Assembly: GCF_947623445.1 (NCBI RefSeq)
Contig: NC_135241.1
Location: forward strand, 24,120,501-24,184,500
Direction of reading: 5' to 3'
Origin: Clavelina lepadiformis
Taxonomy: Eukaryota > Chordata > Ascidiacea > Aplousobranchia > Clavelinidae
DNA length: 64,000 bases
Shown: positions 1 through 38,399 of the stretch, one piece after another
How the letters are laid out: each line of letters begins with the position of its first letter
Position numbering within the stretch: the stretch's first letter is position 1
The notes under the pieces: model-generated
Seen by the model: only the letters and a program-made list of their open reading frames with translations
Databases searched by the model: none
What the model was told of the DNA's origin: nothing
Program-made: the position numbers and the translations under genes

Positions 1-3000
1 CCAATTCGCGATTTCGGAGCAACAAGATAAAAGAGAGAAAGGAGAGGATATAGGAGACCAATAAACGTTCCGAAGATAGTTCTTTTGAAAAGATTTTCAT
101 CTCGAAGTGCGGAGAAGTATCTGTATCTTATATAACTCAAGGCAAGCTGAAAGTCATACAAACAATGTAGTCTGATATAAACGACATATTTTGAAATATT
201 TGGCAGTGTATTTCAGCAATATGCTCAAAGATAAATGTTACAAAGTTATCCTTTATTTACCTGCGAGTGGGGATGAGTTACAAAATTTACTAAACGTAGC
301 TTGCTAGCGCGCTCTAGCAGTTCCAAGCGAGCGCTCACAACTTTCCTCGAAGTTGGCTCATTTGCAAGTGCCTTAATTGCTGATCGAGCGTCATCAAAAC
401 ACACGTGATCGTACTCAAACAAAGTGGCGAGCTCTTTCGACGATTGTATCTAAGAAAAGAAAAGTGTTTGTAGTTCGAGAGTGACTATTTCACCGAATGT
501 AGGTCAAGCAGCCCGTTGGTTGAGGTGGTTAAGAGAATTAGCATGCAAGAAGCTGATTTAAGTTGTATAGGGTTTAATTGAAGTTAGAGGATGATAGGAG
601 AAAGGGAGAAAGATTTGGATTAGGTTTAGGTGACTATGTTATAACATTAACTTTAGGTTAACAAAAACTGTGAAATAGAACTTCGAACGCACAATTTTTT
701 CAGGTGCAATAGGAACAGCTTGTTAGTTTCTCCTTTCATTAGTTTGCTAATTCCACCTTTTACAAGCACAGCGATTAAAATCATCAATAAACCAAATTAT
801 GACTTACTTGGTCGAGCAGTGAGCACATATACTTCTCCACTTGAGCTTCGAGTTTGTGGTAGAAATCACTGTTTTCCTTTTCACGATCAGCATTTTTTTG
901 TAAAGTTTTAATCTGTTTTACGCAAAACGTCATCGGATTTTGGTGATTTACCTAATTAATACATAAATTGATAATTGCTATTAATAGCTCAAAATTGGAA
1001 GTAGAACGTTGTCGAAAAAAAAGAAAGTTGTAAAATCAAAAGGTAACGCAGAGCTAGTTAAGAAACCTCTAAGCTTAGTCTTTCGTTATATTATTGAAAC
1101 AATTTGTTATATGTTCATTCCAACAAAAGTTTAGAAACCAAATACCTCGCACATCAAAGTAATGTAGGCAGGGCTCGCTTTTGCTTTGCACATCATTTTT
1201 CGTTTATTGGCGGATTCCCAGTAAGCCGTGTGTATTCCTTCACACCAGCTAATGGATTCCTAAAATTGTTTGTGAAACAAATTTTACTAAAAATAGTGGG
1301 AAATGTGAAATTAATCTTGTGTCTTGCTTGACTTCACGATGGGTTGTTGGTTGTTACACCTATCTCGAGTCTGCTCTCACCTATCTGCGTTCAATAATTA
1401 AAGCTAGCACAAAACACAATTTTTTATTCCACACCTGGTGATAATAAGATATGACCTTCAGTATAACACAAATTATAGAAAGTCCCACAAATAGCGTGCA
1501 AAATACCGTTAATCTGTGCCCATATCTGTGTAACATTTTCAATGCGTCGTAGTTGTTTTTGATCGCTGCAAGTATCATAGGCGTAGTACCGACATTGAAG
1601 TTGGGATTTTCGCAGTCAACTTCGACCTTTTCGCTGCTTTCATGTTTCAGAATAACTTCTACTCCGGCTAAGAAATCGCGGTTGATAGCGTGCAAAAGAC
1701 AATCGCCAACTTTTACCTGACAAGCAACCCCAAGGATGTAACAAAATGAATATTTCTATCCATACATGTCGTTAGAAATGTCGACCGAGGTTGCACTTGG
1801 CACAACAATTTCGCTCACCTCATGAACCAGCAATGCTTGGCACATTTCAACATCTTCATTTTCTATGGCGATTCTGAGGGCAGTTTTTTCGTGCTGATTG
1901 AGAGAGTTTGGCTGAAATTTAATGCTTTTGTCTATCTTGGAAAGCGAAAATAGTGCTTTGACGTCGCGAACATCGCCCGATGCCACCTTTTCAAGATAAT
2001 AAGAGTTGACGGAACGAGAACCTGACCTTAAAATAAAAAGATCAGCATGATGATACCGTAACTACTGGAAAGTGACTTGTCACCATTTTCATCGTGTTTG
2101 CTCCAACGTCAAACGTGTGCATAAAACGTTTCTACAGATGGTCTGCAACGACCATTGACCTAAAAATACGCTAAATGTTTTTTTTATTTTCGATGTTGTT
2201 TATACGAGGTTAGAATGAAATATTTTCAACAGCAATATTTGTGAAAGCTGCGATAAATTTCGAAATCTCTGACAACAAGTAAACAGCGATAACAGTGACA
2301 AAGCCTGACAACTTCTCACCAAAAGTTTAATCAGTAAAAAACAGTAAAAATAATTTTGTAAGCTGCACACGATGTCTTTATCACCTTTTTAAGTTTGCAA
2401 GGTCGCGGCGAACTTTCCAACCTGCTTTTATTTCGGACTTTGCAACCGAATCTTGACACAATTTGTTTTTCTGTTGCTTCTTTCGGCGTCGTTGTTCCCA
2501 TTCCAATGCAGGGCTCAGTTGAACTTTGTTTTTAAGTCCTGAAATGCAGACGTGTCGGCTGTATGTGAAACTGAAACTGTTTTGGTTCATTTAGTAACTC
2601 ACAAATTTTTTTTTCCGTTATACAAGCGTAATTTTGATCGAGAACACGTTTACCGGAACTCTTACAAATGCTTTACGATGTTAAATACGATTGTTACGTA
2701 TGTATTTCACCTTTAACATTTCCTCCTTCAATCGATGTTAATTTTCTTTTCACTTCCTGCAAAATGTCGGCACTGACAATTTCCGAGAGTGTTTTCATTG
2801 AAAAATATTCTCTTTCGTCTCCTGTCACTGCTTCGTCATAATGCAGCTGTTCTGCTGAAGGAAGTGACGTTATCGTTATGTCGTCAGCAAAACCACTCAC
2901 GGAGCTTAATGACGTAGAAGAAGAGGATGGCGAAACACGAGAATAACTTCTTGTGAAAGCTGCGAGAATAGTTGATAAAAGACAATTTTGGTTAATTTTC

Positions 3001-3398
3001 ATCTAATAATTAAATATAAATATCAGACTGTGAATAAGAGTAGCGCATGTTCTTGTATGGAAACACAGATATACGTTTTACATGAACGCATGTTCTGGTT
3101 ATTACATGTAATCTTGTAGAGAAATAAAAATCAAATATCTGGATAATGGTTAAACAGCGCCACCTCCTGGGTGTCGTGATCGTTTAAGAGCTCTCGCGCT
3201 TGTTTCGACGACCGGAGTTTCTGTTTCATTGTTTGATGTTTTCCTTTCTGTCGGTTCTTTTGATCTTGTCGCTGCAATTCGTGGAATTACGTCATCTCTA
3301 TTACCGCAAGTGACGTTTTGTTTTGCCGACTCGACTATTACGGCGAACGAGTCAGCTGTGAACGTGTCCGTGTTAGATGCTGAAAAGTCCGACATCAT
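1..3398 (-). CDS. TRPC-like cation channel, N-terminal part (gene continues past left edge)
   Basis: The product is the cytoplasmic N-terminus and first membrane helix of a canonical transient receptor potential (TRPC) cation channel. I placed nine exons on the minus strand: 3398-3164, 2959-2711, 2538-2385, 2026-1819, 1716-1507, 1259-1146, 951-808, 449-261 and 146-1 (open). Every junction has GT-AG sites and compatible phase. An in-frame stop directly precedes the ATG at 3398. Exons 4-5 carry TRPC ankyrin repeats (VKVGDCLLHAINRDF; PMILAAIKNNYDALKML). Exons 6-8 carry the TRPC linker helices (ASPAYITL, CSLLDQ, FVTHPHSQ). Exon 9 enters the first membrane helix, ending near YLVAPKSRI. The first two exons encode a Ser/Thr-rich extension of about 160 residues that resembles nothing I know. 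The pore and TRP box are outside the window. TRPC assignment is firm; the subfamily is not. Confidence 0.88.
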
Positions 3399-5781
3399 TT
3401 ATGAGCTTTCGTTTCAAGAAACGATCTTGGCCTTTTTCAAATGAGCAACAGACTTTCAACTACTCCCAATACTTTATCTGGCATCACCCATTTAAGCTTC
3501 CAACATATTTTGTGTAACTTTTAATAAACACTGCAGTTTTAAAAGGTCATTTATCATCACCATTTATTCATTTATCTTTTGCAATATATTGCTTTGAATT
3601 TGAAAGATATTTAACCTACAGAAACATTACTTTGTAAATTAAACTTGTTTTTGGTAATAACCGTCGTCATCAGGTGACTTTTCCGTTCAAAGCTTGGCTA
3701 CTATTTCTTTCCTCTTGGCTTTCTTCCTTCCTTTCACGTTTTGGGTTATAATTTTAAAGAATAAAAATAACTTTACGTTTACACCATCCCGCTATCAGCA
3801 GTGCTTCAACAATATTACTGCTCTGAATTAAAAAAATGTAAAGTTTGTCCAGAAATCAATATTCTTTGCCATTTTCACTTAGTGCCTGCATACATTTGCT
3901 CGGTAATACTTACACCTATTAATATGATTTAACTAAACTACGTTTTGCGTCGTAGTACTGTAGATGTGAGTAATCCAAACAATGTTTTCTCCAAACATAA
4001 ACACGAGTCTTATTTGCAATAATCATCGACTACCTGCGTTGCCCACCATTTTACTTGTAAATTCCCTGAGTTGTTGATTCACACAATGATATGGGAAGCC
4101 GTTAGCTTTAGCAACACGTACACAGTATTTGCAAGTCACATACGTACGGTACATCATGAAATTGTACACGATGAAGTTTTACATTGAACATGTTGCAAAA
4201 GTGTAAAAGTTGTTGTACATCAGGAAATTGCCAGCTTTTTGGCAACTTACTCCATAGGGTTGCGCCTTTTCGACACTCCCCTTTCAAAACCCAGCATTCC
4301 CCGACATGTTCTACTGCAGCAGGTGCTTGCCCTCTTTTAATTGCTGGTTGTCGGACAGAAATGCTTTAGACACAATGATTAATTAATTATCATTTACTTT
4401 ACTTTACCAGTGTTCCCAGAACGTTCTCTAGTTTTGAGTTCTGAAAAGCACAGGAGCATATGAGTATAAGGTTTTAGGGAACTCAAGACATTATAGCGTG
4501 TAAAATTATATGAATCAGTTCTCTAAATCTAACAATGAGTGAGTCATGAGCCAAATACGATCTAGACTCTAGAGTATCCTATAGCTATTAATTCACTGAT
4601 GTCCCAATATATTATGGCTCTGATGTTCGTTAAACAACAAAAATGCCAACACAACTGTAATTTATACTTACCCTGAATTTGACTCGTTTTGGCTGTTGAA
4701 ATATTAGGAGTCCCATCTTTGTTAAGGTTTTTAGAATGATGTCAATTCATGTTTGTTGTTTACTGTTTCGTAAAACTAATTTTGAATTATTGAAAATACT
4801 CTTCTCCCCCGTATTGCACTTACTACAAAAGTATTTGTGAGATATTGCCAAATTACAATATTCTTGTCTTGAGAAATGTCAAATATTTACATTAGCATTA
4901 GACAATATAACGATAAACAAATAATTTCAGAAGATCCTTTCGTGCGCTTGATATTTGGATATTTGAATAATAAAGAAATTATAGCGATAAGATACGTCAT
5001 ATTCGAATAATAATTTAATTGACGTTGTGTGCGGCGTGGGCCTGTGTGTGTTTGTGTGAGTGTGTGCGTGCATGCGTAGGTGCGTGTGTGATGAAAACAA
5101 GATCGAGCTCGTGAGAAGGCATGCTTTGAAGTTTCACCTCTGTGCAAACCGATGACCTTACGTATGACGTCATAATAATACAAATCATTTCACAGAAATC
5201 ACTTGAGAAGCAAATGCTTTTAGAAAAATAAACTGCCATTTTACAAACTGTAGGCTTTTATTAACGGCAACGAGTAAGATATATACGCAAAATATACTGT
5301 GTATAGTAGTGTATTGTTATTGTATAATATTGTACAGCAGAATATTGCAAATCTTATTTTCATCAAATAACCTTAAACATCAGCCGTGATTATGAAAGAT
5401 GCAAACAAAGATGTGAAGTGAAAGTTGACTGATTTATTATTTAAAGAAATATTTAAAGAAAATCGTTAAACATCAAGTTGTTTCTTTTATTTTTTCACTT
5501 TTTCTACAGGACTGAAATGTACAACTGCTTTGAATCTTTTTAATAAACTCTATGCAAAGGAACAAAACAAATTCTTAAAATTTAAAAGACACTTATTTCT
5601 ATATAAAGATGTAAATCAAAAAAAACAAACTGATCGATTCTTGGTCATCTTCAGCAAAGTTGTCATCATTATTATGTATTCCACTAACCACCTGTTGTTA
5701 AAACAAAGACGATTTTTGATTTTACATTTAATCAGTTCATTTTACATCAAAATCTTTTTTTATTCAAACCATCTTACCTTT
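3399..5781. other. Intergenic, between TRPC-like gene and first TSP1-family gene
   Basis: I see no convincing gene here. About 3880-4190 is recognisably similar, at moderate identity, to 9025-9330 on the far side of the first TSP1-family gene, so it is part of an old tandem duplication unit. A TG-rich microsatellite lies at 5041-5092. Small open frames on both strands lack conserved motifs and are probably chance. Confidence 0.6.
5041..5092. repeat. TG-rich microsatellite
   Basis: Imperfect TG/GTGTGC tract of about 50 bp, duplicated unchanged at 28503-28554 as part of the 12.2-kb repeat. The frames that cross it, rich in His and Thr on the minus strand, are products of the simple repeat. Confidence 0.85.
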
Positions 5782-7851
5782 CTATTCAATATTTCTACAC
5801 GGTTCAACGTTGCAGTTTCTTGTCTCCAAGCTCTCACCAACGCAGTCGTCGGATAAATTGCGCGGGTCTGCTCCGTCTCTGCAAGTCCGCTCTCTCGTTT
5901 GAGTTCCGGCTCCGCAAGAAGCGGAGCAATCACCCCATTTTCCAGTACCCGCCCAAAATGGTTCTGGACAAAAAAATGTTTAACTCAGAAAATGCCAGCT
6001 TTTGGTTTTATCAATAGAATTTGAATTGAACGTTTCAACGAATTTCCGAATCCAAGGCAGTAACTTTTTATCTGGCATTTGGAACTTCCATTTTCTACCT
6101 GGTGGAAAGAAATCTTTTCCACATCTGTACAGTGCTTCCCTTAACGGAGAATCGATTCTGGTCAATGCCACAAACCTGAACGGCCAGACTGAACTCATCC
6201 GATCTGTCGATGACAGTATACGCTGGATGTCGCATCTGTGCAATAAAACATGTTTCATCAGCTCAGGTTTATCAGGTAAAATCGATGGGCATTGTTGCAT
6301 CCATCATTTATATTGTGGAAAGGAATCTCGAGCGCAGAGAAGAAATTATGTTTATTGAAATTAACGTTCTTAACCAGAAACATTGACTCCATGGCACGCA
6401 AAAGACACCATCTCACAAATGGGCAAACTGTATACCGAGTATGACCAATAACATCAAACTTGAAATTTATATATGTTGATAAAACATCTTATCATGGAAG
6501 TAAAATGTCACATTTACACTCACGAGTATTGCAGATGCTTGTCCACTACATCTGATAGAAACCGATAATCGAATGATGGAAATGAGGATGTTTCTACAGA
6601 ACTATCCAAGCAGGAAATATAACCTTCCCTCAAGTAGTGTTGAGCTTCAGACGAGTGTTTTGCACTATCGGAAGAATTTGGAAGTATCTCCCGTTTCTTT
6701 TTGCTTGGCTGGTATTCAACTATTGGACAAAAACAAAACCTTTTAGTCAATTACTACAAACCACTACATTAGAACCGCAGATAACTAATTGGTACGCAAT
6801 ATTTGCTGATATTTTATATGTTCTTAACTCTGAGAATAATGCAACGGGGCCCATCGTTAACACTGAGATTAATATGTTATGTACACTACATTACACCGAG
6901 ATTAATGTATTAAGTGTCCATCGTTGAATGCCTGCTTCTACTTACAAATTCCTTGAGAGAAATCTGCTTCGTATTGGTCGATGCAATCTTTTCCTGCTTG
7001 AAGAACGTCCTCAGACGAACTTCCCGATTGCACATAAACCTCCAACTCGTTCTTCCAACAACCTGCAGTGGCGTCTCCTCTGAAACAGAAACAACTTATG
7101 ATGTTGAACAGTATCGAGTAAGAAATGCAAAACTTGAAAAACATTGGCATTTTATCTTGCTGAAACTTCATGCAAATAGCCTTTAACATGTAACCGTAGT
7201 AACAAATTTCTTACAAACAAGTGAAATCTTCAGTGTCTTTGTACCAGTTGGTCTCAAGAACCGAATAATCAACAACAGACTCCCAATCCGATGTAAGTTC
7301 AGCCTGGAACAGCAATTTGTGTGACTTTTAATGTTAAGAGTGACTATATTCGCTGTTTGACTATGTGTGCTACCAGTTTTGCCTACTGCTTACTGGTATA
7401 CTGGAGAAACTATGAGTATTCTTAGGTCGTTTTGCTCAATAGTCGCAAAACCTCAAGTACCTTGTCATTCAAACATGCCGCAAAATATTCTCGAAGTGCC
7501 ACAGTTGCCTGAATCTCTTCGGCGCTTGTTCGTTTGCGTCTTTTGCGGTCACCGAGCCAAATGTTGCAGCCTGATAACAGAAACCTTGTGTTAAAGATGC
7601 GAGCAAAGATGAAGTGATGAAAAGAAACAAACGGAATTGTCCCCGAAACACAATGCTACTAGCTTGTTCTTTCTATTCTCAACAAGCGTTTGCATTTATA
7701 TTACACATGACTGACTTGACGTGATATTCATATTAACTGTAAAGTGCTTTGCAATTATTCACAAAAAACGTGCATATCACCAACCTCGGCTTTCATTGAA
7801 AAGACAGAAGATGTGCAAAGTGAGAATGAAGATTGAAAACCTCCGGTTCAT
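5782..7851 (-). CDS. Secreted cysteine-rich/TSP1 family protein, member 1
   Basis: Seven phase-compatible exons: 7851-7785, 7570-7461, 7303-7215, 7079-6946, 6719-6524, 6235-6099 and 5963-5782, giving 304 residues. Exon 1 is a signal peptide (MNRRFSIFILTLHIFCLF). Exon 2 holds a short propeptide with a furin-like site (DRKRRKR). Exons 3-4 carry the family blocks TNWYKDTEDFTC and GDATAGCWKNELEVYVQSG, and exon 5 a variable linker with a second basic cluster (PSKKKRE). Exon 6 carries VWPFRFVALTRIDSPLREAL and FFPPG. Exon 7 is one TSP1 repeat (GKWGDCSASCGAGTQTRERT) ending after EPC. A secreted, proteolytically processed extracellular protein is inferred. The region between the RRKR site and the TSP1 repeat matches no family I recognise. 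Members 6-8 have a second TSP1 repeat and a tail exon; this one stops after the first. Confidence 0.88.
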
Positions 7852-10169
7852 GATTCTGTTCAGATCAGATTTGGGCAACTAATTAGGAAAAGGTAATCTA
7901 GGAAAAATAATAATTCTACCTACTATTTTCGCGTTTTCTGACTCTCACAATTTTACTGATGGTTTACTGATAAACTTTCCACTTATTAAAAGTTGTCGTC
8001 TTACTGGCATTCAGCCAAGTTATGACAGGGAATATGTTTCTAGAGATTCCAACAATGATCTCAACAAGCGATACCAAGAGGGGTAGTGTACAGCCCGATT
8101 TTAAAAAGTTCACTCAGCCTGAAATCTTACGCTTTTAATCGCGTATAAAATATTTCAATGCATAAAAATTTTCATTTTGTTCGAATGACTTCAAGCACAC
8201 AATTACCACATTTCATATCCTGGTACATTTGGTTACTATGGCTGACGAGCGCTCTGAGCGATAAAAGTTTCTTACTTTGCACATAAACTAACGCCATACC
8301 ATTTCCTGGTGGTGCAAGTTTGTAACCGCTGCGTAACCGTTAAAGATGTATCCTTACTACTAATGACGTCATTATGACCCTAGTTATGATACGAAATGGT
8401 ACTTTGTTAATTTCCTCATCAAGTTTTCAAATTTCTTATGTTTCTCCCACTTTACGTTCCGCCGAAGGTTGAACAAACAAAGTAATATTTTGCGACTGTA
8501 AAACCGCAATCAAATAGGCGGAGCTTTTAATTTTGTGTAAAAAAACAGCATTGAAAAATGTCAAATCCACTTTGGTTTCTGAGCCACAGTTGGAAATGTA
8601 CAGTCCTTTAAGGTGATAAAACTTTTTTACGTATTTACAAAATTTTCCGCTGCCAATTCTTGTTGCTTCCATTCTACAGTTCTGTTGGGGTTATACCGCG
8701 CGCAAAACGAGCTTATCTTGTGCATTTTTTCGTTTCTTTGCTGTTTTGGGTATTATGTAGGTGCCGAGTATCAATCGCAACAAAATATAAATAACCGGAT
8801 TAGTTCTTTCATTCGCGGAAATTTCTGAACAAATATATTTGGGGATATGACCCAAATACCCTGAAAATCGTGAATAAGTTTATTTTTTCAATCTTAAATC
8901 CGTTTTACCAGTCTTCCACGTAAACTCTGTACTGCTTAATTACTTATTAGAAAAGGGCAAGTTTTTCGTTTAAACGCAGCCGTTCGTCTTTATTTTCTAC
9001 CAAAAATCTGTTGTGGTTTGGTCTCAATGCCTGCACTCATTTATCTTGCGCCACTTACCAAGCACTGTGCTTTATGTAAGCTTGTTTTGATTCATAGTAG
9101 ATATGAGTAAACCGAATATTTTTAGCTTGCATAGTTGTCTCCAAATATGAACGGGAATTATTTCACAAGGATCATCGACTGTATACGTTGTTCACTACTT
9201 TAGATCATCTGAGCTGATGATTCACATAATGATTTGACAAGTCGTTAGCTTTTACATCACGTATGCTTGCAACAGTTGCAATTCACACACCTATGTACAT
9301 CATGCATAAATCATACATTTGCACAGTCTTGCAATTCCAACAAAGCATAAAACAATGATGACGAAAGCACCTTATAGTATCCTACAGTCATGTTTACGCA
9401 GATACCTCCATGTGTTGTAGCGCAAGCGCGAATGAAATCTTTGTGAATTACGTGCGCGTATGCTGTACGTGTGTATGCTGCATGTGCGAAATATGAAAGC
9501 GGTGATTTACGGTGTTACCTCATGCTGTCAAGTTCATTTGTAACTTCTTGCTTTCGACCTATCCTAGCACGTACAAAAATCTTTTACTTGTGAAGCTTTC
9601 TTTGTTTTACCAATGTCATGCACAGTACGTCACCGAAGGCTTCTTATTAAAAGTAAATGTTTGATGCTTGCACAGTATATTTCAATATTCAAAATTAATT
9701 GATTAAAATCTGTTTTTCTGCATCAGTGTTTGCTTTACCCGCTCAGAAAATCCGACTGAGATTTTCATTAATCAGTGGAAAAGAGTAGTTTTACCCATGT
9801 GTTGCAGCTTTAACGTTGATAATGGGGAAAAAATAAGCTGTTTATTTGTTCATTTCACTCACAGGACAAAAAATTACATTTGGTTAAAAGATTTATAGCA
9901 CAGAAAAAAGAGATTGTTCATAAAATAATCTTGTATTTGAGCATTTGTCTGCATAACGATTTATGCTCCGAGAAAAATACTAACTAAAAGACTCTTGGTT
10001 AATTTGCAAAATTTTCTTCACTTTTATGTGGCTGCTGTCACATCAACCTGTCGTAAAAAATACGCCGCATGTCAAATTTGAAAAATGAAAATGAATTTGA
10101 TAAAATAAAATATTAATTGAAAAAAAACATAATGATTTTCAAATTAACATAAAACAATTAATTCTACTT
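7852..10169. other. Intergenic, between TSP1-family members 1 and 2
   Basis: No supported gene. Positions 9025-9330 resemble 3880-4190, marking a diverged tandem unit that carries one gene each. The 78-residue minus frame at 8436-8672 has no recognisable motif or splice context, and I leave it uncalled. Confidence 0.6.
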
Positions 10170-12098: not shown

Positions 12099-12292
12099 TG
12101 CTGTCTGCATATTACAGACTGTATATTTCCTATACTTTGTACAACGAGTTACGAAACCAAAGCTAGAAACAAAAATTCTACCAACTAAGAGCTTTCTGCA
12201 ATTTAGCTGCCTGCAAGATTCTTGTACCTCGCTTGTATCATTTTTTTGTTGCAAAAATGAGAATCATTTCTGGTTTGTACATTGATTCGTGC

Positions 12293-22726: not shown

Positions 22727-22927
22727 TTCGTCAAAACTAAATTCGATGTCTTAAACGCAGGATATATTTTTAGCAAAATCTTTCTATTTACTGTGAAAGA
22801 AGAAGAATGTTCACAAACGTCAAGTTCTTGAAACCGTTTCACCAACGCGGGTTAATATCAGCTAACAGTTTTTTTATTTCAACACCCATACGCAATAGCG
22901 CAAAATAAACTGATTGTTGGAAGGTAA

Positions 22928-23559
22928 CAAAATATATACTGCACAATGTATTTAATGATTGAGCAACTCCATGAAATAATGTGTCATTTCCCAGAATCTG
23001 AAATATTTTCATTTAAATTTGGAAATTTAGTTTAAGTTTGAACGAAACTAACTGAATCACTGAGGAACAAAATACTTTACATGAATCAATAAATCTAAAA
23101 TTTGAAAAGTTATTTTAACTTTACATGAAATGAGTCTCATTACTTCAAATACAGCACCAATTTTCAACCATATTTATTATTTACTTTGTCGAATCTTTTA
23201 CTCACTAGTTACGATTATGCTCAATTTAAATAACGTTCCTGGTCTTGTGCGTTGCTAAGCTGCTTGCCTTCTACTTGAATGTGAAGCAACTGTGTGAGTT
23301 ACAGAATAATTTATAGTGAGATTTCAGACTTTCATGGCGACAACGAGAAAACATAGTAACCACCTGCGTTTAAGCGGAGATAATAGTGCGAGGTGGGCAA
23401 GGTGTGAAGAACAATTACAAGGGCGCAAGTGCAAATGAGCTTCGATTTGAAATCCCGTCAGGTCAGATAAGATGATGTCACGACCGAAACTTTTATCAAC
23501 TTTAGAATGGAGTCGCACCAAAACAATGAAACAACAAATGTCCTCTATCAAGAAAAACA
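22928..23559. repeat. 0.6-kb dispersed or flanking repeat, copy 2
   Basis: Direct copy of 13291-13907 with about 5% substitutions and short indels, the largest near its right end. It runs to within about 8 bp of the left end of the second 12.2-kb copy (23567). Its minus strand supplies an in-frame continuation to the cut TRPC exon (see the truncated TRPC entry). Confidence 0.85.
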
Positions 23560-26500
23560 TGAAATAAAGTGCGGAGAAGTATCTGTATCTTATATAACTC
23601 AAGGCAAGCTGAAAGTCATACAAACAATGTAGTCTGATATAAACGACATATTTTGAAATATTTGGCAGTGTATTTCAGCAATATGCTCAAAGATAAATGT
23701 TACAAAGTTATCCTTTATTTACCTGCGAGTGGGGATGAGTTACAAAATTTACTAAACGTAGCTTGCTAGCGCGCTCTAGCAGTTCCAAGCGAGCGCTCAC
23801 AACTTTCCTCGAAGTTGGCTCATTTGCAAGTGCCTTAATTGCTGATCGAGCGTCATCAAAACACACGTGATCGTACTCAAACAAAGTGGCGAGCTCTTTC
23901 GACGATTGTATCTAAGAAAAGAAAAGTGTTTGTAGTTCGAGAGTGACTATTTCACCGAATGTAGGTCAAGCAGCCCGTTGGTTGAGGTGGTTAAGAGAAT
24001 TAGCATGCAAGAAGCTGATTTAAGTTGTATAGGGTTTAATTGAAGTTAGAGGATGATAGGAGAAAGGGAGAAAGATTTGGATTAGGTTTAGGTGACTATG
24101 TTATAACATTAACTTTAGGTTAACAAAAACTGTGAAATAGAACTTCGAACGCACAATTTTTTCAGGTGCAATAGGAACAGCTTGTTAGTTTCTCCTTTCA
24201 TTAGTTTGCTAATTCCACCTTTTACAAGCACAGCGATTAAAATCATCAATAAACCAAATTATGACTTACTTGGTCGAGCAGTGAGCACATATACTTCTCC
24301 ACTTGAGCTTCGAGTTTGTGGTAGAAATCACTGTTTTCCTTTTCACGATCAGCATTTTTTTGTAAAGTTTTAATCTGTTTTACGCAAAACGTCATCGGAT
24401 TTTGGTGATTTACCTAATTAATACATAAATTGATAATTGCTATTAATAGCTCAAAATTGGAAGTAGAACGTTGTCGAAAAAAAAGAAAGTTGTAAAATCA
24501 AAAGGTAACGCAGAGCTAGTTAAGAAACCTCTAAGCTTAGTCTTTCGTTATATTATTGAAACAATTTGTTATATGTTCATTCCAACAAAAGTTTAGAAAC
24601 CAAATACCTCGCACATCAAAGTAATGTAGGCAGGGCTCGCTTTTGCTTTGCACATCATTTTTCGTTTATTGGCGGATTCCCAGTAAGCCGTGTGTATTCC
24701 TTCACACCAGCTAATGGATTCCTAAAATTGTTTGTGAAACAAATTTTACTAAAAATAGTGGGAAATGTGAAATTAATCTTGTGTCTTGCTTGACTTCACG
24801 ATGGGTTGTTGGTTGTTACACCTATCTCGAGTCTGCTCTCACCTATCTGCGTTCAATAATTAAAGCTAGCACAAAACACAATTTTTTATTCCACACCTGG
24901 TGATAATAAGATATGACCTTCAGTATAACACAAATTATAGAAAGTCCCACAAATAGCGTGCAAAATACCGTTAATCTGTGCCCATATCTGTGTAACATTT
25001 TCAATGCGTCGTAGTTGTTTTTGATCGCTGCAAGTATCATAGGCGTAGTACCGACATTGAAGTTGGGATTTTCGCAGTCAACTTCGACCTTTTCGCTGCT
25101 TTCATGTTTCAGAATAACTTCTACTCCGGCTAAGAAATCGCGGTTGATAGCGTGCAAAAGACAATCGCCAACTTTTACCTGACAAGCAACCCCAAGGATG
25201 TAACAAAATGAATATTTCTATCCATACATGTCGTTAGAAATGTCGACCGAGGTTGCACTTGGCACAACAATTTCGCTCACCTCATGAACCAGCAATGCTT
25301 GGCACATTTCAACATCTTCATTTTCTATGGCGATTCTGAGGGCAGTTTTTTCGTGCTGATTGAGAGAGTTTGGCTGAAATTTAATGCTTTTGTCTATCTT
25401 GGAAAGCGAAAATAGTGCTTTGACGTCGCGAACATCGCCCGATGCCACCTTTTCAAGATAATAAGAGTTGACGGAACGAGAACCTGACCTTAAAATAAAA
25501 AGATCAGCATGATGATACCGTAACTACTGGAAAGTGACTTGTCACCATTTTCATCGTGTTTGCTCCAACGTCAAACGTGTGCATAAAACGTTTCTACAGA
25601 TGGTCTGCAACGACCATTGACCTAAAAATACGCTAAATGTTTTTTTTATTTTCGATGTTGTTTATACGAGGTTAGAATGAAATATTTTCAACAGCAATAT
25701 TTGTGAAAGCTGCGATAAATTTCGAAATCTCTGACAACAAGTAAACAGCGATAACAGTGACAAAGCCTGACAACTTCTCACCAAAAGTTTAATCAGTAAA
25801 AAACAGTAAAAATAATTTTGTAAGCTGCACACGATGTCTTTATCACCTTTTTAAGTTTGCAAGGTCGCGGCGAACTTTCCAACCTGCTTTTATTTCGGAC
25901 TTTGCAACCGAATCTTGACACAATTTGTTTTTCTGTTGCTTCTTTCGGCGTCGTTGTTCCCATTCCAATGCAGGGCTCAGTTGAACTTTGTTTTTAAGTC
26001 CTGAAATGCAGACGTGTCGGCTGTATGTGAAACTGAAACTGTTTTGGTTCATTTAGTAACTCACAAATTTTTTTTTCCGTTATACAAGCGTAATTTTGAT
26101 CGAGAACACGTTTACCGGAACTCTTACAAATGCTTTACGATGTTAAATACGATTGTTACGTATGTATTTCACCTTTAACATTTCCTCCTTCAATCGATGT
26201 TAATTTTCTTTTCACTTCCTGCAAAATGTCGGCACTGACAATTTCCGAGAGTGTTTTCATTGAAAAATATTCTCTTTCGTCTCCTGTCACTGCTTCGTCA
26301 TAATGCAGCTGTTCTGCTGAAGGAAGTGACGTTATCGTTATGTCGTCAGCAAAACCACTCACGGAGCTTAATGACGTAGAAGAAGAGGATGGCGAAACAC
26401 GAGAATAACTTCTTGTGAAAGCTGCGAGAATAGTTGATAAAAGACAATTTTGGTTAATTTTCATCTAATAATTAAATATAAATATCAGACTGTGAATAAG

Positions 26501-26860
26501 AGTAGCGCATGTTCTTGTATGGAAACACAGATATACGTTTTACATGAACGCATGTTCTGGTTATTACATGTAATCTTGTAGAGAAATAAAAATCAAATAT
26601 CTGGATAATGGTTAAACAGCGCCACCTCCTGGGTGTCGTGATCGTTTAAGAGCTCTCGCGCTTGTTTCGACGACCGGAGTTTCTGTTTCATTGTTTGATG
26701 TTTTCCTTTCTGTCGGTTCTTTTGATCTTGTCGCTGCAATTCGTGGAATTACGTCATCTCTATTACCGCAAGTGACGTTTTGTTTTGCCGACTCGACTAT
26801 TACGGCGAACGAGTCAGCTGTGAACGTGTCCGTGTTAGATGCTGAAAAGTCCGACATCAT
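23324..26860 (-). pseudogene. Truncated second copy of the TRPC-like gene (5' exons only)
   Basis: Exons 1-8 are repeated at +23462 from the first copy (26860-26626, 26421-26173, 26000-25847, 25488-25281, 25178-24969, 24721-24608, 24413-24270 and 23911-23723). Exon 9 begins at 23608, but after 14 codons (LALSYIRYRYFSAL) the duplication ends at 23567. The frame then runs into the 0.6-kb repeat for 80 residues to a stop at 23324. All membrane helices and the pore are lost. If transcribed, it would encode the ankyrin and linker region with a chimeric tail. If the duplication is an assembly artefact, this gene does not exist. I regard it as a non-functional channel copy either way. Confidence 0.8.
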
Positions 26861-29243
26861 TTATGAGCTTTCGTTTCAAGAAACGATCTTGGCCTTTTTC
26901 AAATGAGCAACAGACTTTCAACTACTCCCAATACTTTATCTGGCATCACCCATTTAAGCTTCCAACATATTTTGTGTAACTTTTAATAAACACTGCAGTT
27001 TTAAAAGGTCATTTATCATCACCATTTATTCATTTATCTTTTGCAATATATTGCTTTGAATTTGAAAGATATTTAACCTACAGAAACATTACTTTGTAAA
27101 TTAAACTTGTTTTTGGTAATAACCGTCGTCATCAGGTGACTTTTCCGTTCAAAGCTTGGCTACTATTTCTTTCCTCTTGGCTTTCTTCCTTCCTTTCACG
27201 TTTTGGGTTATAATTTTAAAGAATAAAAATAACTTTACGTTTACACCATCCCGCTATCAGCAGTGCTTCAACAATATTACTGCTCTGAATTAAAAAAATG
27301 TAAAGTTTGTCCAGAAATCAATATTCTTTGCCATTTTCACTTAGTGCCTGCATACATTTGCTCGGTAATACTTACACCTATTAATATGATTTAACTAAAC
27401 TACGTTTTGCGTCGTAGTACTGTAGATGTGAGTAATCCAAACAATGTTTTCTCCAAACATAAACACGAGTCTTATTTGCAATAATCATCGACTACCTGCG
27501 TTGCCCACCATTTTACTTGTAAATTCCCTGAGTTGTTGATTCACACAATGATATGGGAAGCCGTTAGCTTTAGCAACACGTACACAGTATTTGCAAGTCA
27601 CATACGTACGGTACATCATGAAATTGTACACGATGAAGTTTTACATTGAACATGTTGCAAAAGTGTAAAAGTTGTTGTACATCAGGAAATTGCCAGCTTT
27701 TTGGCAACTTACTCCATAGGGTTGCGCCTTTTCGACACTCCCCTTTCAAAACCCAGCATTCCCCGACATGTTCTACTGCAGCAGGTGCTTGCCCTCTTTT
27801 AATTGCTGGTTGTCGGACAGAAATGCTTTAGACACAATGATTAATTAATTATCATTTACTTTACTTTACCAGTGTTCCCAGAACGTTCTCTAGTTTTGAG
27901 TTCTGAAAAGCACAGGAGCATATGAGTATAAGGTTTTAGGGAACTCAAGACATTATAGCGTGTAAAATTATATGAATCAGTTCTCTAAATCTAACAATGA
28001 GTGAGTCATGAGCCAAATACGATCTAGACTCTAGAGTATCCTATAGCTATTAATTCACTGATGTCCCAATATATTATGGCTCTGATGTTCGTTAAACAAC
28101 AAAAATGCCAACACAACTGTAATTTATACTTACCCTGAATTTGACTCGTTTTGGCTGTTGAAATATTAGGAGTCCCATCTTTGTTAAGGTTTTTAGAATG
28201 ATGTCAATTCATGTTTGTTGTTTACTGTTTCGTAAAACTAATTTTGAATTATTGAAAATACTCTTCTCCCCCGTATTGCACTTACTACAAAAGTATTTGT
28301 GAGATATTGCCAAATTACAATATTCTTGTCTTGAGAAATGTCAAATATTTACATTAGCATTAGACAATATAACGATAAACAAATAATTTCAGAAGATCCT
28401 TTCGTGCGCTTGATATTTGGATATTTGAATAATAAAGAAATTATAGCGATAAGATACGTCATATTCGAATAATAATTTAATTGACGTTGTGTGCGGCGTG
28501 GGCCTGTGTGTGTTTGTGTGAGTGTGTGCGTGCATGCGTAGGTGCGTGTGTGATGAAAACAAGATCGAGCTCGTGAGAAGGCATGCTTTGAAGTTTCACC
28601 TCTGTGCAAACCGATGACCTTACGTATGACGTCATAATAATACAAATCATTTCACAGAAATCACTTGAGAAGCAAATGCTTTTAGAAAAATAAACTGCCA
28701 TTTTACAAACTGTAGGCTTTTATTAACGGCAACGAGTAAGATATATACGCAAAATATACTGTGTATAGTAGTGTATTGTTATTGTATAATATTGTACAGC
28801 AGAATATTGCAAATCTTATTTTCATCAAATAACCTTAAACATCAGCCGTGATTATGAAAGATGCAAACAAAGATGTGAAGTGAAAGTTGACTGATTTATT
28901 ATTTAAAGAAATATTTAAAGAAAATCGTTAAACATCAAGTTGTTTCTTTTATTTTTTCACTTTTTCTACAGGACTGAAATGTACAACTGCTTTGAATCTT
29001 TTTAATAAACTCTATGCAAAGGAACAAAACAAATTCTTAAAATTTAAAAGACACTTATTTCTATATAAAGATGTAAATCAAAAAAAACAAACTGATCGAT
29101 TCTTGGTCATCTTCAGCAAAGTTGTCATCATTATTATGTATTCCACTAACCACCTGTTGTTAAAACAAAGACGATTTTTGATTTTACATTTAATCAGTTC
29201 ATTTTACATCAAAATCTTTTTTTATTCAAACCATCTTACCTTT

Positions 29244-31313
29244 CTATTCAATATTTCTACACGGTTCAACGTTGCAGTTTCTTGTCTCCAAGCTCTCACC
29301 AACGCAGTCGTCGGATAAATTGCGCGGGTCTGCTCCGTCTCTGCAAGTCCGCTCTCTCGTTTGAGTTCCGGCTCCGCAAGAAGCGGAGCAATCACCCCAT
29401 TTTCCAGTACCCGCCCAAAATGGTTCTGGACAAAAAAATGTTTAACTCAGAAAATGCCAGCTTTTGGTTTTATCAATAGAATTTGAATTGAACGTTTCAA
29501 CGAATTTCCGAATCCAAGGCAGTAACTTTTTATCTGGCATTTGGAACTTCCATTTTCTACCTGGTGGAAAGAAATCTTTTCCACATCTGTACAGTGCTTC
29601 CCTTAACGGAGAATCGATTCTGGTCAATGCCACAAACCTGAACGGCCAGACTGAACTCATCCGATCTGTCGATGACAGTATACGCTGGATGTCGCATCTG
29701 TGCAATAAAACATGTTTCATCAGCTCAGGTTTATCAGGTAAAATCGATGGGCATTGTTGCATCCATCATTTATATTGTGGAAAGGAATCTCGAGCGCAGA
29801 GAAGAAATTATGTTTATTGAAATTAACGTTCTTAACCAGAAACATTGACTCCATGGCACGCAAAAGACACCATCTCACAAATGGGCAAACTGTATACCGA
29901 GTATGACCAATAACATCAAACTTGAAATTTATATATGTTGATAAAACATCTTATCATGGAAGTAAAATGTCACATTTACACTCACGAGTATTGCAGGTGC
30001 TTGTCCACTACATCTGATAGAAACCGATAATCGAATGATGGAAATGAGGATGTTTCTACAGAACTATCCAAGCAGGAAATATAACCTTCCCTCAAGTAGT
30101 GTTGAGCTTCAGACGAGTGTTTTGCACTATCGGAAGAATTTGGAAGTATCTCCCGTTTCTTTTTGCTTGGCTGGTATTCAACTATTGGACAAAAACAAAA
30201 CCTTTTAGTCAATTACTACAAACCACTACATTAGAACCGCAGATAACTAATTGGTACGCAATATTTGCTGATATTTTATATGTTCTTAACTCTGAGAATA
30301 ATGCAACGGGGCCCATCGTTAACACTGAGATTAATATGTTATGTACACTACATTACACCGAGATTAATGTATTAAGTGTCCATCGTTGAATGCCTGCTTC
30401 TACTTACAAATTCCTTGAGAGAAATCTGCTTCGTATTGGTCGATGCAATCTTTTCCTGCTTGAAGAACGTCCTCAGACGAACTTCCCGATTGCACATAAA
30501 CCTCCAACTCGTTCTTCCAACAACCTGCAGTGGCGTCTCCTCTGAAACAGAAACAACTTATGATGTTGAACAGTATCGAGTAAGAAATGCAAAACTTGAA
30601 AAACATTGGCATTTTATCTTGCTGAAACTTCATGCAAATAGCCTTTAACATGTAACCGTAGTAACAAATTTCTTACAAACAAGTGAAATCTTCAGTGTCT
30701 TTGTACCAGTTGGTCTCAAGAACCGAATAATCAACAACAGACTCCCAATCCGATGTAAGTTCAGCCTGGAACAGCAATTTGTGTGACTTTTAATGTTAAG
30801 AGTGACTATATTCGCTGTTTGACTATGTGTGCTACCAGTTTTGCCTACTGCTTACTGGTATACTGGAGAAACTATGAGTATTCTTAGGTCGTTTTGCTCA
30901 ATAGTCGCAAAACCTCAAGTACCTTGTCATTCAAACATGCCGCAAAATATTCTCGAAGTGCCACAGTTGCCTGAATCTCTTCGGCGCTTGTTCGTTTGCG
31001 TCTTTTGCGGTCACCGAGCCAAATGTTGCAGCCTGATAACAGAAACCTTGTGTTAAAGATGCGAGCAAAGATGAAGTGATGAAAAGAAACAAACGGAATT
31101 GTCCCCGAAACACAATGCTACTAGCTTGTTCTTTCTATTCTCAACAAGCGTTTGCATTTATATTACACATGACTGACTTGACGTGATATTCATATTAACT
31201 GTAAAGTGCTTTGCAATTATTCACAAAAAACGTGCATATCACCAACCTCGGCTTTCATTGAAAAGACAGAAGATGTGCAAAGTGAGAATGAAGATTGAAA
31301 ACCTCCGGTTCAT
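29244..31313 (-). CDS. Secreted cysteine-rich/TSP1 family protein, duplicate of member 1
   Basis: Identical in protein sequence to the gene at 5782-7851. The single base change at 29997 is synonymous. Exons are 31313-31247, 31032-30923, 30765-30677, 30541-30408, 30181-29986, 29697-29561 and 29425-29244. The same features apply: signal peptide, RKRRKR propeptide site, the unrecognised cysteine-containing region and one TSP1 repeat, 304 residues. It counts as a separate gene only if the 12.2-kb duplication is real. Confidence 0.75.
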
Positions 31314-33631
31314 GATTCTGTTCAGATCAGATTTGGGCAACTAATTAGGAAAAGGTAATCTAGGAAAAATAATAATTCTACCTACTATTTTCGCGTTTTC
31401 TGACTCTCACAATTTTACTGATGGTTTACTGATAAACTTTCCACTTATTAAAAGTTGTCGTCTTACTGGCATTCAGCCAAGTTATGACAGGGAATATGTT
31501 TCTAGAGATTCCAACAATGATCTCAACAAGCGATACCAAGAGGGGTAGTGTACAGCCCGATTTTAAAAAGTTCACTCAGCCTGAAATCTTACGCTTTTAA
31601 TCGCGTATAAAATATTTCAATGCATAAAAATTTTCATTTTGTTCGAATGACTTCAAGCACACAATTACCACATTTCATATCCTGGTACATTTGGTTACTA
31701 TGGCTGACGAGCGCTCTGAGCGATAAAAGTTTCTTACTTTGCACATAAACTAACGCCATACCATTTCCTGGTGGTGCAAGTTTGTAACCGCTGCGTAACC
31801 GTTAAAGATGTATCCTTACTACTAATGACGTCATTATGACCCTAGTTATGATACGAAATGGTACTTTGTTAATTTCCTCATCAAGTTTTCAAATTTCTTA
31901 TGTTTCTCCCACTTTACGTTCCGCCGAAGGTTGAACAAACAAAGTAATATTTTGCGACTGTAAAACCGCAATCAAATAGGCGGAGCTTTTAATTTTGTGT
32001 AAAAAAACAGCATTGAAAAATGTCAAATCCACTTTGGTTTCTGAGCCACAGTTGGAAATGTACAGTCCTTTAAGGTGATAAAACTTTTTTACGTATTTAC
32101 AAAATTTTCCGCTGCCAATTCTTGTTGCTTCCATTCTACAGTTCTGTTGGGGTTATACCGCGCGCAAAACGAGCTTATCTTGTGCATTTTTTCGTTTCTT
32201 TGCTGTTTTGGGTATTATGTAGGTGCCGAGTATCAATCGCAACAAAATATAAATAACCGGATTAGTTCTTTCATTCGCGGAAATTTCTGAACAAATATAT
32301 TTGGGGATATGACCCAAATACCCTGAAAATCGTGAATAAGTTTATTTTTTCAATCTTAAATCCGTTTTACCAGTCTTCCACGTAAACTCTGTACTGCTTA
32401 ATTACTTATTAGAAAAGGGCAAGTTTTTCGTTTAAACGCAGCCGTTCGTCTTTATTTTCTACCAAAAATCTGTTGTGGTTTGGTCTCAATGCCTGCACTC
32501 ATTTATCTTGCGCCACTTACCAAGCACTGTGCTTTATGTAAGCTTGTTTTGATTCATAGTAGATATGAGTAAACCGAATATTTTTAGCTTGCATAGTTGT
32601 CTCCAAATATGAACGGGAATTATTTCACAAGGATCATCGACTGTATACGTTGTTCACTACTTTAGATCATCTGAGCTGATGATTCACATAATGATTTGAC
32701 AAGTCGTTAGCTTTTACATCACGTATGCTTGCAACAGTTGCAATTCACACACCTATGTACATCATGCATAAATCATACATTTGCACAGTCTTGCAATTCC
32801 AACAAAGCATAAAACAATGATGACGAAAGCACCTTATAGTATCCTACAGTCATGTTTACGCAGATACCTCCATGTGTTGTAGCGCAAGCGCGAATGAAAT
32901 CTTTGTGAATTACGTGCGCGTATGCTGTACGTGTGTATGCTGCATGTGCGAAATATGAAAGCGGTGATTTACGGTGTTACCTCATGCTGTCAAGTTCATT
33001 TGTAACTTCTTGCTTTCGACCTATCCTAGCACGTACAAAAATCTTTTACTTGTGAAGCTTTCTTTGTTTTACCAATGTCATGCACAGTACGTCACCGAAG
33101 GCTTCTTATTAAAAGTAAATGTTTGATGCTTGCACAGTATATTTCAATATTCAAAATTAATTGATTAAAATCTGTTTTTCTGCATCAGTGTTTGCTTTAC
33201 CCGCTCAGAAAATCCGACTGAGATTTTCATTAATCAGTGGAAAAGAGTAGTTTTACCCATGTGTTGCAGCTTTAACGTTGATAATGGGGAAAAAATAAGC
33301 TGTTTATTTGTTCATTTCACTCACAGGACAAAAAATTACATTTGGTTAAAAGATTTATAGCACAGAAAAAAGAGATTGTTCATAAAATAATCTTGTATTT
33401 GAGCATTTGTCTGCATAACGATTTATGCTCCGAGAAAAATACTAACTAAAAGACTCTTGGTTAATTTGCAAAATTTTCTTCACTTTTATGTGGCTGCTGT
33501 CACATCAACCTGTCGTAAAAAATACGCCGCATGTCAAATTTGAAAAATGAAAATGAATTTGATAAAATAAAATATTAATTGAAAAAAAACATAATGATTT
33601 TCAAATTAACATAAAACAATTAATTCTACTT

Positions 33632-35560
33632 CTAGATTGTTTCCATTAAAATATGACCTTGAGCGCACGGTTCAACGTTGCAATTTCTTGTCTCCAAGCT
33701 CTCACCAATGCAGTCGTCGGATAAACTGCGCGGATCTGCTCCGTCTCTACAAGTCCGCTCTCTCGTTTGCGTTCCGCCTCCGCAAGAAGCGGAACAAACA
33801 CCCCAATTTCCAGTACCAGCCCAAAATGGTTCTGAAAAAAAAATTGTTTAACTCAGAAAATGCCAGCTTTTGGTTTTATCAATAGAATTTGAATTGAACG
33901 TTTCAACAAATTTCCGAATCCAAGGCAGTCACTTTTTATCTGGCATTTGGAACTTCCATTTTCTACCTGGTGGAAAGAAATCTTTTCCGCATCTGTACAG
34001 TGCTTCCCTTAATGGAGAATCGATTCTGGTCAATGCCGCAAACCTGAACGGCCAGACTGAACTCATCCGATCTGTTGACGACAGTGTCCGCTGGATGTCG
34101 CACCTGTGCAATAAAAAAAGTTTCATCAGCTCAGGTTTATCAGGTAAAATCGATGGGCATTGTTGCATCGATCATTTATGACTATGTTATAGACAGGAAT
34201 TTCGAGCGAAGAGAAGAAATTATGTTCAATGAAATTAATGTTCTTAACCAGAAACTTTGACTCCACGCAAGAGACACCATCTCACAAATGGGCAAACTAT
34301 ATGTATAGTTTACTCGTGTACCGAGTATAACCATTAACATCAAACTTGAAATTTATATATTTTTATAAAACATCTTTGTATGCAAGTAAAATATCACATT
34401 TACACTCACGAGTATTGCAGATGCTTGTCCACTACATCTGATAGAAACCGATAATCAAATGATGGAAGTGAGGATGTTTCTACAGAACTATCCAAGCAGG
34501 AAATATAGCCTTCCTTCAAGTTATTATAAACTTCAGATGATTGTTGTGCACTGTTGGAAGATTTTGGAAGTACCTCCCGTTTCTTTTTACTTGGCTGGTA
34601 TTCAACTGTATTCAGCAAAAACAAATCTTTTAGCTAACAACTGTAAGTTTATATATTGAAGTTACAAAACCCAAACAGGTTTGCAACATTCTCGGATAGT
34701 TCATATTTTTTGAATTAAAGTTCTTAACACTGAGATTAATGTATTTAGTGGCCAATCGTTGAATGCCTGCTTCTACTTACAAATTCCTTGAGAGAAATCT
34801 GCTTCGTATTGATCGATGCAATATTTTCCTGCTTGAAGAACGTCCTCAGAAGAATTTCCCGATTGCACATAAACGTCCAACTCGTTCTTCCAACAACCTG
34901 CAGTGGCGTTTCCTCTGAAACAGAAGTAACTTATCATGTTGAACTGTACCGACTAAGAAATTCACAACGTTGAACAACTTTGGAAACGATCTCGACTGAA
35001 CTTGATGCAGTAACAAATTTCTTACAAACAAGTGAAATCTTCTGTGTCTCTGTACCAGTTGGTTTCAAGAACCGAATAATCAACAACAGACTCCCAATCC
35101 GATGTAAGTACAGCCTGGAAAAAGATGTAATTTGAGTGATTTTTATACTTGCCTACTGCTCACTGGTGTAACGGAGAAACTAAATATCTTTAAAAGATTG
35201 TTTTGTTCAAGAGCCTCTATTACCTTGTCATTCAAACATGCCGCAAAATATTCTCGAAGGGCTTCAGTTGCCTGAATCTCTTCGGCGCTTGTTCGTTTGC
35301 GTCTTTTGCGGTCACCGAGCCAAATGTTGCAGCCTGATAACAGAAACCTTGTGTTAGAGACGCAAAACTATTGCAGAAATGAATGAAATTATCTCATGTA
35401 GGAGACCGTCTGCTACCACATTCTTATAGGATATTTTGGAGTGCTATCTGCTTGTATGTTACTAAACACGAAAAGGTCGAATTTATCGCCAACCTTGACT
35501 ATCATTGAAAAGACAGAAGATGTGCAAAGTGAGAATGAAAAATGAAATCCGCTTGTTCAT
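33632..35560 (-). CDS. Secreted cysteine-rich/TSP1 family protein, duplicate of member 2
   Basis: Identical in coding sequence to 10170-12098. Unlike that copy, the duplication ends 194 bp upstream of its ATG and continues into unique DNA rather than a transposon. This copy therefore more likely keeps the ancestral promoter. Features are as for member 2: signal peptide, RRKR site, conserved cysteine region and one TSP1 repeat. Confidence 0.78.
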
Positions 35561-35754
35561 TGCTGTCTGCATATTACAGACTGTATATTTCCTATACTTT
35601 GTACAACGAGTTACGAAACCAAAGCTAGAAACAAAAATTCTACCAACTAAGAGCTTTCTGCAATTTAGCTGCCTGCAAGATTCTTGTACCTCGCTTGTAT
35701 CATTTTTTTGTTGCAAAAATGAGAATCATTTCTGGTTTGTACATTGATTCGTGC

Positions 35755-38388: not shown

Positions 38389-38399
38389 TATTATATAAT
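38389..38399 (-). promoter_or_regulatory. Possible TATA element upstream of member 5
   Basis: TATATAAT-like sequence about 270 bp before the pseudogene ATG, in a position similar to the TATAAATA of member 6. The leader between TATA and ATG is alignable between the two genes. Confidence 0.35.

What the first reader, a model, noticed from the sequence alone, without database searches (positions are those of the whole stretch)
105..35754. Two 12,188-bp copies with one visible difference flank an 11.3-kb block with unrelated genes
Copies 105-12292 and 23567-35754 are in register throughout. If 12293-35754 is removed, the TRPC gene, TSP1-family pair and rest of the array form one continuous locus. 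The extra material (transposon, repeat, F-box gene, RTF1, repeat, second copy) looks inserted with a 12-kb repeat around it. Outcrossing marine invertebrates often have 1-5% allelic divergence, so two near-identical copies fit re-use of the same reads or haplotype in assembly. A duplication a few generations old or ongoing gene conversion would also fit.
Basis: partly seen in the sequence, partly recalled or inferred. Interest (0 to 1): 0.8.

Follow-up and report, generated by a model that had tools for sequence, protein, structure and literature searches.

The report
Young duplication around a displaced gene unit
In a sea-squirt chromosome a 12-kb stretch occurs twice, almost letter for letter, on either side of a gene unit that resembles those of an array almost a million bases away; the junctions suggest a recent real rearrangement set off by a jumping gene rather than an assembly mistake, but only the raw reads can prove it.

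Summary
The locus lies in a copy of the Clavelina lepadiformis assembly, where the duplicated sequence is found full length only at these two places. The 11,274-bp middle block is not "unrelated": it is a 999-bp transposon plus just over one unit of an F-box/RTF1 tandem array 0.84-1.0 Mb away on the same chromosome. The transposon sits flush on the end of copy 1 and flush on the array unit and has no target-site duplication, whereas 11 of 11 relatives with both ends readable (13 fetched) have one of 8-9 bp. The block's other end meets copy 2 at 2-4 bp of microhomology. The uninterrupted site survives at 35754/35755. The topology is known from tumours as a "cis reciprocal duplication"; a transposon end fused to a target with donor flank attached is known from maize alternative transposition. 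I favour one recent real event combining the two. Artefact is less likely, but only reads (ERR10499356) can exclude it. Two things strain the account: no assembled array unit is closer than about 95-96%, and no reads could be examined.

The parts
1..104 (.). left flank L, taken as continuous with copy 1; downstream part of the TRPC-like gene lies here and to the left
   Evidence: minus-strand Ion_trans ORF at window -1724..-750 (L007:8276-9250)
105..12292 (.). copy 1 (B): 5' part of the TRPC-like gene, two TSP1-domain genes; ends in GATTCGTGC, the transposon's target side
1381..3002 (-). ankyrin and N-terminal ORFs of the TRPC-like gene (second, truncated copy at 24843-26464)
   Evidence: Ank_2 E 2.8e-4 and 2.3e-3, both below the family cut-off; the N-terminal ORF 2694-2999 matches no family
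5785..7851 (-). TSP1-domain gene 1; holds the only difference between the copies (6535/29997, synonymous His in the ORF ending VDKHLQYS)
   Evidence: TSP_1 E 3.1e-11 at 5785-5979; three other ORFs of this gene match no family
10173..12110 (-). TSP1-domain gene 2 (82% paralogue of gene 1); a signal-peptide-like start (my reading) lies 180-195 bp before the transposon
   Evidence: TSP_1 E 4.1e-10 at 10173-10385
12293..13291 (+). DNA transposon GGTGTACC...ACCAAACC with inverted subterminal 15/31-bp repeats; no target-site duplication here
13292..13907 (+). array repeat R1, flush on the transposon
13908..22927 (+). rest of one unit resembling the C2:24.98-25.14 Mb F-box/RTF1 array, best local matches about 87-99%
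15743..16297 (+). F-box/LRR gene, first exon-like ORFs
   Evidence: F-box-like E 3.1e-12; LRR_FBXL18 E 0.0067, below cut-off
20975..22750 (-). single-frame RTF1-like ORF, 591 aa, Plus-3 domain, no internal stop
22928..23566 (+). array repeat R2 (94% to R1), truncated by copy 2
23567..23570 (.). 2-4 bp of microhomology (AA to AAGT) between array sequence and copy 2
   Evidence: array sequences L080 and L081 carry GAAATAAAGT and GAAATAAACT at this point; L079 and L082 carry GAAATTAACC, and L083-L085 diverge earlier
23567..35754 (.). copy 2 (B'): identical to copy 1 but for one base; TRPC-like gene truncated at its left end, TSP1 pair with native upstream sequence
35755..48705 (-). right flank R with further TSP1-domain genes; 35754/35755 is the transposon-free site

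Best explanation
It is a real, evolutionarily recent compound rearrangement of the order L-B-E-B'-R. Shown in the assembly: B is duplicated; E is a transposon plus a 10.3-kb piece resembling a distant array; the transposon's left end is fused to the end of B and its right end to array-type sequence without a target-site duplication; E meets B' at microhomology; the uninterrupted site persists at B'/R. Inferred: a transposon lying in an array unit attacked the B/R site about 0.9 Mb away with one end while its other end stayed attached to the array (aberrant or alternative transposition in S or G2 phase). Replication or break-induced copying then ran through the transposon into about 10.3 kb of array and broke off, and the free end was joined by microhomology to a sister chromatid 12.2 kb upstream, at base 105. 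The result is an extra TSP1 gene pair, a truncated TRPC-like copy, and an extra F-box/RTF1 unit in a new place. Confidence is for the whole statement; for 'a real duplication in the animal' alone I put about 0.85.
For: Exact boundaries and one difference. E has array matches from end to end: R1, the unit and the right part up to 23568-23570, with one nearest unit at 95.2-96.0% over 15673-23568. The transposon lacks a TSD, while 11 of 11 other copies with both ends readable, of 13 fetched, have 8-9 bp. The transposon/array junction occurs once in the genome with up to 2 mismatches, here. The transposon is young: 4 of 999 bases unlike any of 12 compared copies, where about 20 would be expected had it sat there since E and the nearest unit diverged (L066 dropped because its right end was not found and it aligned with 95 differences in 780). 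B' has no transposon at its right end although B and B' differ by one base, which points to sister chromatids rather than diverged homologues (inference). The ion-channel domain lies only on the L-B side. The published assembly is HiFi at 117x, QV 67.4, BUSCO duplicated 0.6% (PMC10884593).
Against: No assembled array unit found is closer than 95-96% to E over 15673-23568 (99% over one 2.2-kb stretch), and the left 2.4 kb is 85-92% from that neighbourhood (in one search only 40 of 112 candidates were scored). A copying event as young as the B pair should have a near-identical donor, so the donor must be on the other haplotype, lost, or converted since. No second transposon end bounds E, as it does in maize composite insertions. 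The order of steps is not recoverable from one sequence. No read evidence was available. A microhomology of 2-4 bp is weak evidence on its own, and 5 of the 7 array ends read do not share all four bases or even two.
Confidence: 0.5

Rival explanations
1. Real duplication, but without transposase. The transposon was already inserted at B/R on one chromosome; a broken end inside it invaded another copy lying in the array by homology, copied 10.3 kb, then switched template by microhomology back to base 105 (BIR/MMBIR, replication restart).
For: Same topology as cis reciprocal duplications (order ABEBC) in BRCA1-deficient tumours (PMC10482687, passages); microhomology at the second junction; dispersed near-identical transposon copies give homology.
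Against: B'/R has no transposon and no TSD, so the template for B' must have lacked it; yet B and B' differ by one base, which a diverged homologue would not give unless heterozygosity here is very low (not measured). E (11.3 kb) is longer than the 50 bp-1 kb that predominates in cis cases. No transposon copy was found in the assembled array.
Confidence: 0.27
2. Assembly artefact: the graph walked B twice, or a heterozygous trans rearrangement (one chromosome B-transposon-array, another array-B'-R) was phased into one contig.
For: Copies nearly identical; published fragment size 12-20 kb is close to the 12.2-kb repeat; the array is repetitive; 9 haplotypic duplications had to be removed by curation; the divergent donor is unexplained.
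Against: Needs unusual junctions to be real anyway. Transposon/array junction found once, and no array-side remnant found for a 9-bp or an 8-bp TSD; no B sequence near the array; no N; one difference against about 0.004 expected errors.
Confidence: 0.12
3. Old duplication kept identical by gene conversion or unequal exchange between the copies.
For: E differs 4-5% from its nearest assembled array unit, so E as a sequence is old.
Against: Identity runs unbroken over 12,188 bp to the exact last base at both ends, bar one base; the transposon inside E is young.
Confidence: 0.07
4. A circular or somatic B-E molecule beside a normal L-B-R chromosome, collapsed into one path.
For: A graph loop L-B-R plus B-E gives the same path; colonial animal, so mosaicism is possible (inference, no call).
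Against: Nothing seen points to it; a fixed base difference between the copies is less expected (inference).
Confidence: 0.04

Closest known systems
cis reciprocal duplication (ABEBC templated insertion, MMBIR/replication-restart model; Nature 2023, PMC10482687, 12 of 38 passages shown)
   Same: two copies of B flank a segment E copied from a distant locus; B of 12.2 kb is inside their 1-300 kb; junctions with minimal homology
   Different: E is 11.3 kb against predominantly 50 bp-1 kb; reference genome of a wild animal, not a tumour; one junction is an exact transposon end
Maize reversed-ends / alternative transposition with tandem direct duplication and composite insertion (PMC3744419, 12 of 23 passages; PMC4270019, parts 1-3 of 7)
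   Same: transposon end fused to a target with donor flank attached and, in natural duplications, no matching TSD on one side; fully sized composites of 10-24 kb; end-joined composites closed at 3, 4 or 9 bp of microhomology or none; donor 13 kb to 1.7 Mb away on the same chromosome
   Different: composite insertions there are bounded by transposon ends on both sides; some were closed by homologous recombination; in the TDDCI alleles the duplicated segment spans donor to target, whereas here it is a 12-kb stretch beside the target; the family here is not shown to be hAT
Drosophila P-element hybrid element insertion (named in PMC3744419; details recalled)
   Same: ends from two elements produce flanking rearrangements with the element at the junction
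   Different: no distant array unit carried along as far as I recall; not tested here
Tandem duplications by polymerase-theta end joining in C. elegans helq-1 mutants (PMC8654963, abstract and outline)
   Same: tandem duplication from an aborted homologous repair closed by end joining
   Different: no distant insertion or transposon end mentioned in the abstract

Membership tests
cis reciprocal duplication (ABEBC) | two copies of B around a segment from a distant locus, on one molecule | tested here: met
   in the assembly; phase not proven by reads, and E is only 95-96% like its nearest assembled source
cis reciprocal duplication (ABEBC) | E predominantly 50 bp-1 kb | tested here: not met
   E is 11,274 bp
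cis reciprocal duplication (ABEBC) | junctions with minimal homology | tested here: inconclusive
   second junction 2-4 bp; first junction is a transposon end
Composite insertion by alternative transposition | insertion begins exactly at a transposon end, with no matching TSD on the element's other side | tested here: met
   left ATTGATTCGTGC, right AAAATATATACT, 0 bp shared
Composite insertion by alternative transposition | insertion bounded by transposon ends on both sides | tested here: not met
   array sequence runs into copy 2
Composite insertion by alternative transposition | donor flank contiguous with the element in the progenitor | tested here: inconclusive
   flank is array-type sequence, but no array copy with the transposon was found in the assembly
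Simple transposon insertion | 8-9-bp target-site duplication | tested here: not met
   against 11 of 11 other copies with both ends readable
Mutator-like element | 8-11-bp TSD (recalled) and MULE transposase | tested here: inconclusive
   TSD of 8-9 bp fits but fits other superfamilies too; no transposase was sought
Macrotransposon or Pack-MULE | cargo lies between two element ends | tested here: not met
   no element end at 23559-23567; array sequence continues to copy 2
False haplotypic duplication | no read spans the junctions; depth halved | not testable with these tools
   reads not held

The most novel reading that the evidence does not exclude
A chordate germline carries a recent product of alternative transposition coupled to re-replication: one transposon end captured a neighbouring gene-array unit, moved it about 0.9 Mb into a new locus, and left a 12-kb tandem duplication of the target. 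A selfish element thereby created a duplicated TSP1 gene pair and seeded a new site for an F-box/RTF1 array in one step.
Probability: 0.35. Interest if true: 0.6.

Novelty: new variant of a known kind. Interest (0 to 1): 0.4.

Why it matters
If reads confirm it, this is a fresh segmental duplication whose every junction can be read, showing how a transposon end can carry a gene unit to a new place and duplicate the target in one go. That route is described in maize; among the 49 papers listed (of 196 that matched), judged by title and abstract start, I saw no chordate case of it. It would also show that a near-identical duplication in a wild-animal assembly need not be an artefact, and how junction anatomy can argue the point before reads are mapped.

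Tried and rejected
Simple transposon insertion at a pre-existing B/E junction: rejected because no TSD is present and both ends would have to coincide with the junction. LTR-like reading of the R1/R2 direct repeats: rejected because the same repeat occurs at several array places. A further full-length copy of B: not found. A further copy of the first 8 kb of R: not found; the rest of R was not searched. Donor still in the assembly: not found by junction pattern for the right side with 2 mismatches, for the left side with a 9-bp TSD and 3 mismatches (one 2-mismatch hit on C5, outside the array), or for the left side with an 8-bp TSD and 3 mismatches. Transposon recombinant of two known copies: I saw no clear breakpoint in the variant table, by eye only. 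Genome-wide rate of near-identical duplications: not measured; only 164 kb around the locus was compared.

Literature: searches (9 of 9 listed; 10 of 58; 12 of 69; 3 of 3; 15 of 57) were the searches for similar cases. The three papers, from titles and abstract starts, do not concern this locus. Apart and the genome-note search, no search was limited to tunicates, so absence in print is not claimed beyond these. PMC12373286 (ascidian pangenome) was seen as a listing only.

Full report
Source. The window is G000:C2:24120501-24184500 of a 209,060,895-bp, 95-contig genome. Contigs C4 (25,070,715 bp) and C8 (19,509,797 bp) equal, to the base, the scaffold N50 and N90 printed for Clavelina lepadiformis kaClaLepa1.1 (PMC10884593, parts 1 and 2 of 3 read). 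C1, C2 and the total are slightly smaller than printed (28,783,666 against 28,789,166 for C1), so this is probably another version or a filtered copy. That paper gives 117x HiFi, fragments sheared to 12-20 kb, Hifiasm, purge_dups, Hi-C, QV 67.4, BUSCO duplicated 0.6%, and an alternate haplotype deposit.

Observation. The two copies are 12,188 bp each, in register, with one mismatch, and differ at the very next base on both sides. Searched in two parts, the copy is found full length only at these two places. In 164 kb around the locus no other pair longer than 100 bp exceeds 94.9%. The single difference is CAT/CAC (His) in an ORF of the first TSP1-domain gene; that this ORF is an exon is my reading, from its likeness to a neighbouring gene and a splice-donor-like end, and it matches no Pfam family.

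What the middle block is. 12293-13291 is a 999-bp DNA transposon with GGTGTACC...ACCAAACC ends and inverted subterminal minisatellites, with relatives on all nine large contigs. 13292-23566 is array-type sequence. Its stretches match a cluster at C2:24.98-25.14 Mb, the best local matches being about 87-99%. The nearest unit, in 25.042-25.059 Mb, matches at 95.2% (15673-19702) and 96.0% (19703-23568) and is interrupted between these by a 6.2-kb insertion that the window lacks; left of 15673 that neighbourhood is only 85-92% alike. R1 and R2 (94% alike) are a repeat that recurs in the array. The RTF1-like ORF is complete here and at seven array places aligned over all 590 residues without a stop; an eighth place (25.0016-25.0033 Mb) is split into two matches, and more distant relatives lie on C9, C6 and, broken by stops, C3. 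The block is therefore just over one array unit, placed 0.84-1.0 Mb from the array, with a transposon at its left edge.

Junctions. (i) B | transposon: the transposon's first base follows GATTCGTGC, the last nine bases of B. (ii) transposon | array: its last base precedes AAAATATATACTG. These flanks share no bases, whereas 11 of 11 relatives with both ends readable (13 fetched, two with one end not found) have perfect 8-9-bp target-site duplications. (iii) array | B': homology to the array continues 2-4 bp into B' in the best matches; of seven array ends read, L080 carries GAAATAAAGT and L081 GAAATAAACT, L079 and L082 GAAATTAACC, and L083-L085 diverge earlier. (iv) B' | R: ATTGATTCGTGC|AACATC, transposon-free. 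So the transposon was not simply inserted; its two sides come from two loci.

Which order is native. A TRPC-like gene seems to cross L|B: ankyrin-like ORFs are in B (below Pfam's cut-off) and the Ion_trans ORF is in L; four other ORFs that I took for parts of these genes matched no family (L007:9494-9679 and 2694-2999; 249-449 and 12024-12263). In B' the gene is cut at 23567. B'|R is then the only place left for the native right side of B. Both TSP1 genes of the copy have a TSP_1 domain above cut-off. B' keeps the natural sequence upstream of TSP1 gene 2, while in B the transposon lies 180-195 bp before that gene's presumed start, so the two copies differ in their upstream region.

Age. B against B' gives 8e-5 (95% 2e-6 to 4.6e-4). 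The transposon copy is also young: no base stood alone against an otherwise uniform column, and, with a wider definition and L066 dropped, 4 of 999 bases were unlike any of 12 copies. If it had sat in place since E and its nearest unit parted (4-5%), about 20 would be expected (chance of 4 or fewer 1.7e-5; a rough bound, since copies were only sampled and at some columns only four or five could be compared). The divergence of E from the assembled array therefore most likely predates the event, and the donor was a unit not in this assembly. This is the weakest point of the account.

Mechanism. B and B' are too alike to come from diverged homologues, yet B has the transposon at its end and B'/R has none; sister chromatids during or after replication fit best. 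Heterozygosity was not measured, so this is inference. I infer that a transposon in an array unit joined one end to the B/R target while its other end stayed attached to the array, that copying ran through it into about 10.3 kb of array, and that the broken end joined at microhomology to base 105 of a sister. The parts are precedented. Maize alternative transposition gives transposon ends with donor flank, one-sided TSDs in natural duplications, and end joins with 3, 4 or 9 bp of microhomology or none (PMC3744419 passages; PMC4270019 parts 1-3 of 7). Tumours with failed homologous repair show the same ABEBC order (PMC10482687 passages). Neither is met in full: the maize composites have transposon ends on both sides, and the tumour inserts in cis are predominantly 50 bp-1 kb.

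Artefact. It would need the same unusual junctions to exist in molecules and then be wrongly joined; the trans version predicts array-side remnants that I did not find. It stays possible because B is as long as many of the fragments, the donor is missing, and no reads could be examined.

Verdict. Observation confirmed; artefact reading not favoured; most likely a young real rearrangement, a new variant of known mechanisms, of moderate interest until reads settle it.

Noticed in passing
G000:C2:24984443-25142904 and window 20975-22750: Tandem array of F-box/LRR plus single-frame RTF1-like genes with seven full-length uninterrupted RTF1 ORFs besides the window's; dN/dS of the window copy against the nearest is 0.77, with differences concentrated in the first two thirds of the gene. 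Further relatives on C9 (14.50-14.57 Mb) and C6 (18.32 Mb). Amplification of a Paf1-complex gene is unusual as far as I recall.
   Followed up: partly
G000:C2:25048922-25055084 (L064): A 6.2-kb insertion with terminal direct repeats splits the array unit nearest to the window block; the window copy has the uninterrupted site.
   Followed up: no
window 468-727 and 23930-24189: A ~240-bp stretch in the copies matches 38 scored places elsewhere at 70-77% (40 of 764 candidates scored, so a lower bound), probably an old dispersed repeat.
   Followed up: no
window 56038-56185: 10-bp tandem repeat TCAGTCCGGT, 14.8 copies, 97% matches.
   Followed up: no
window coordinates 75057-79805 (right of the window, L009): A second local tandem duplication at 93-95% identity.
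   Followed up: no
transposon family, L073-L077: Five 759-bp copies of the transposon on three chromosomes with 0-1 private substitutions each: a recently active family.
   Followed up: partly
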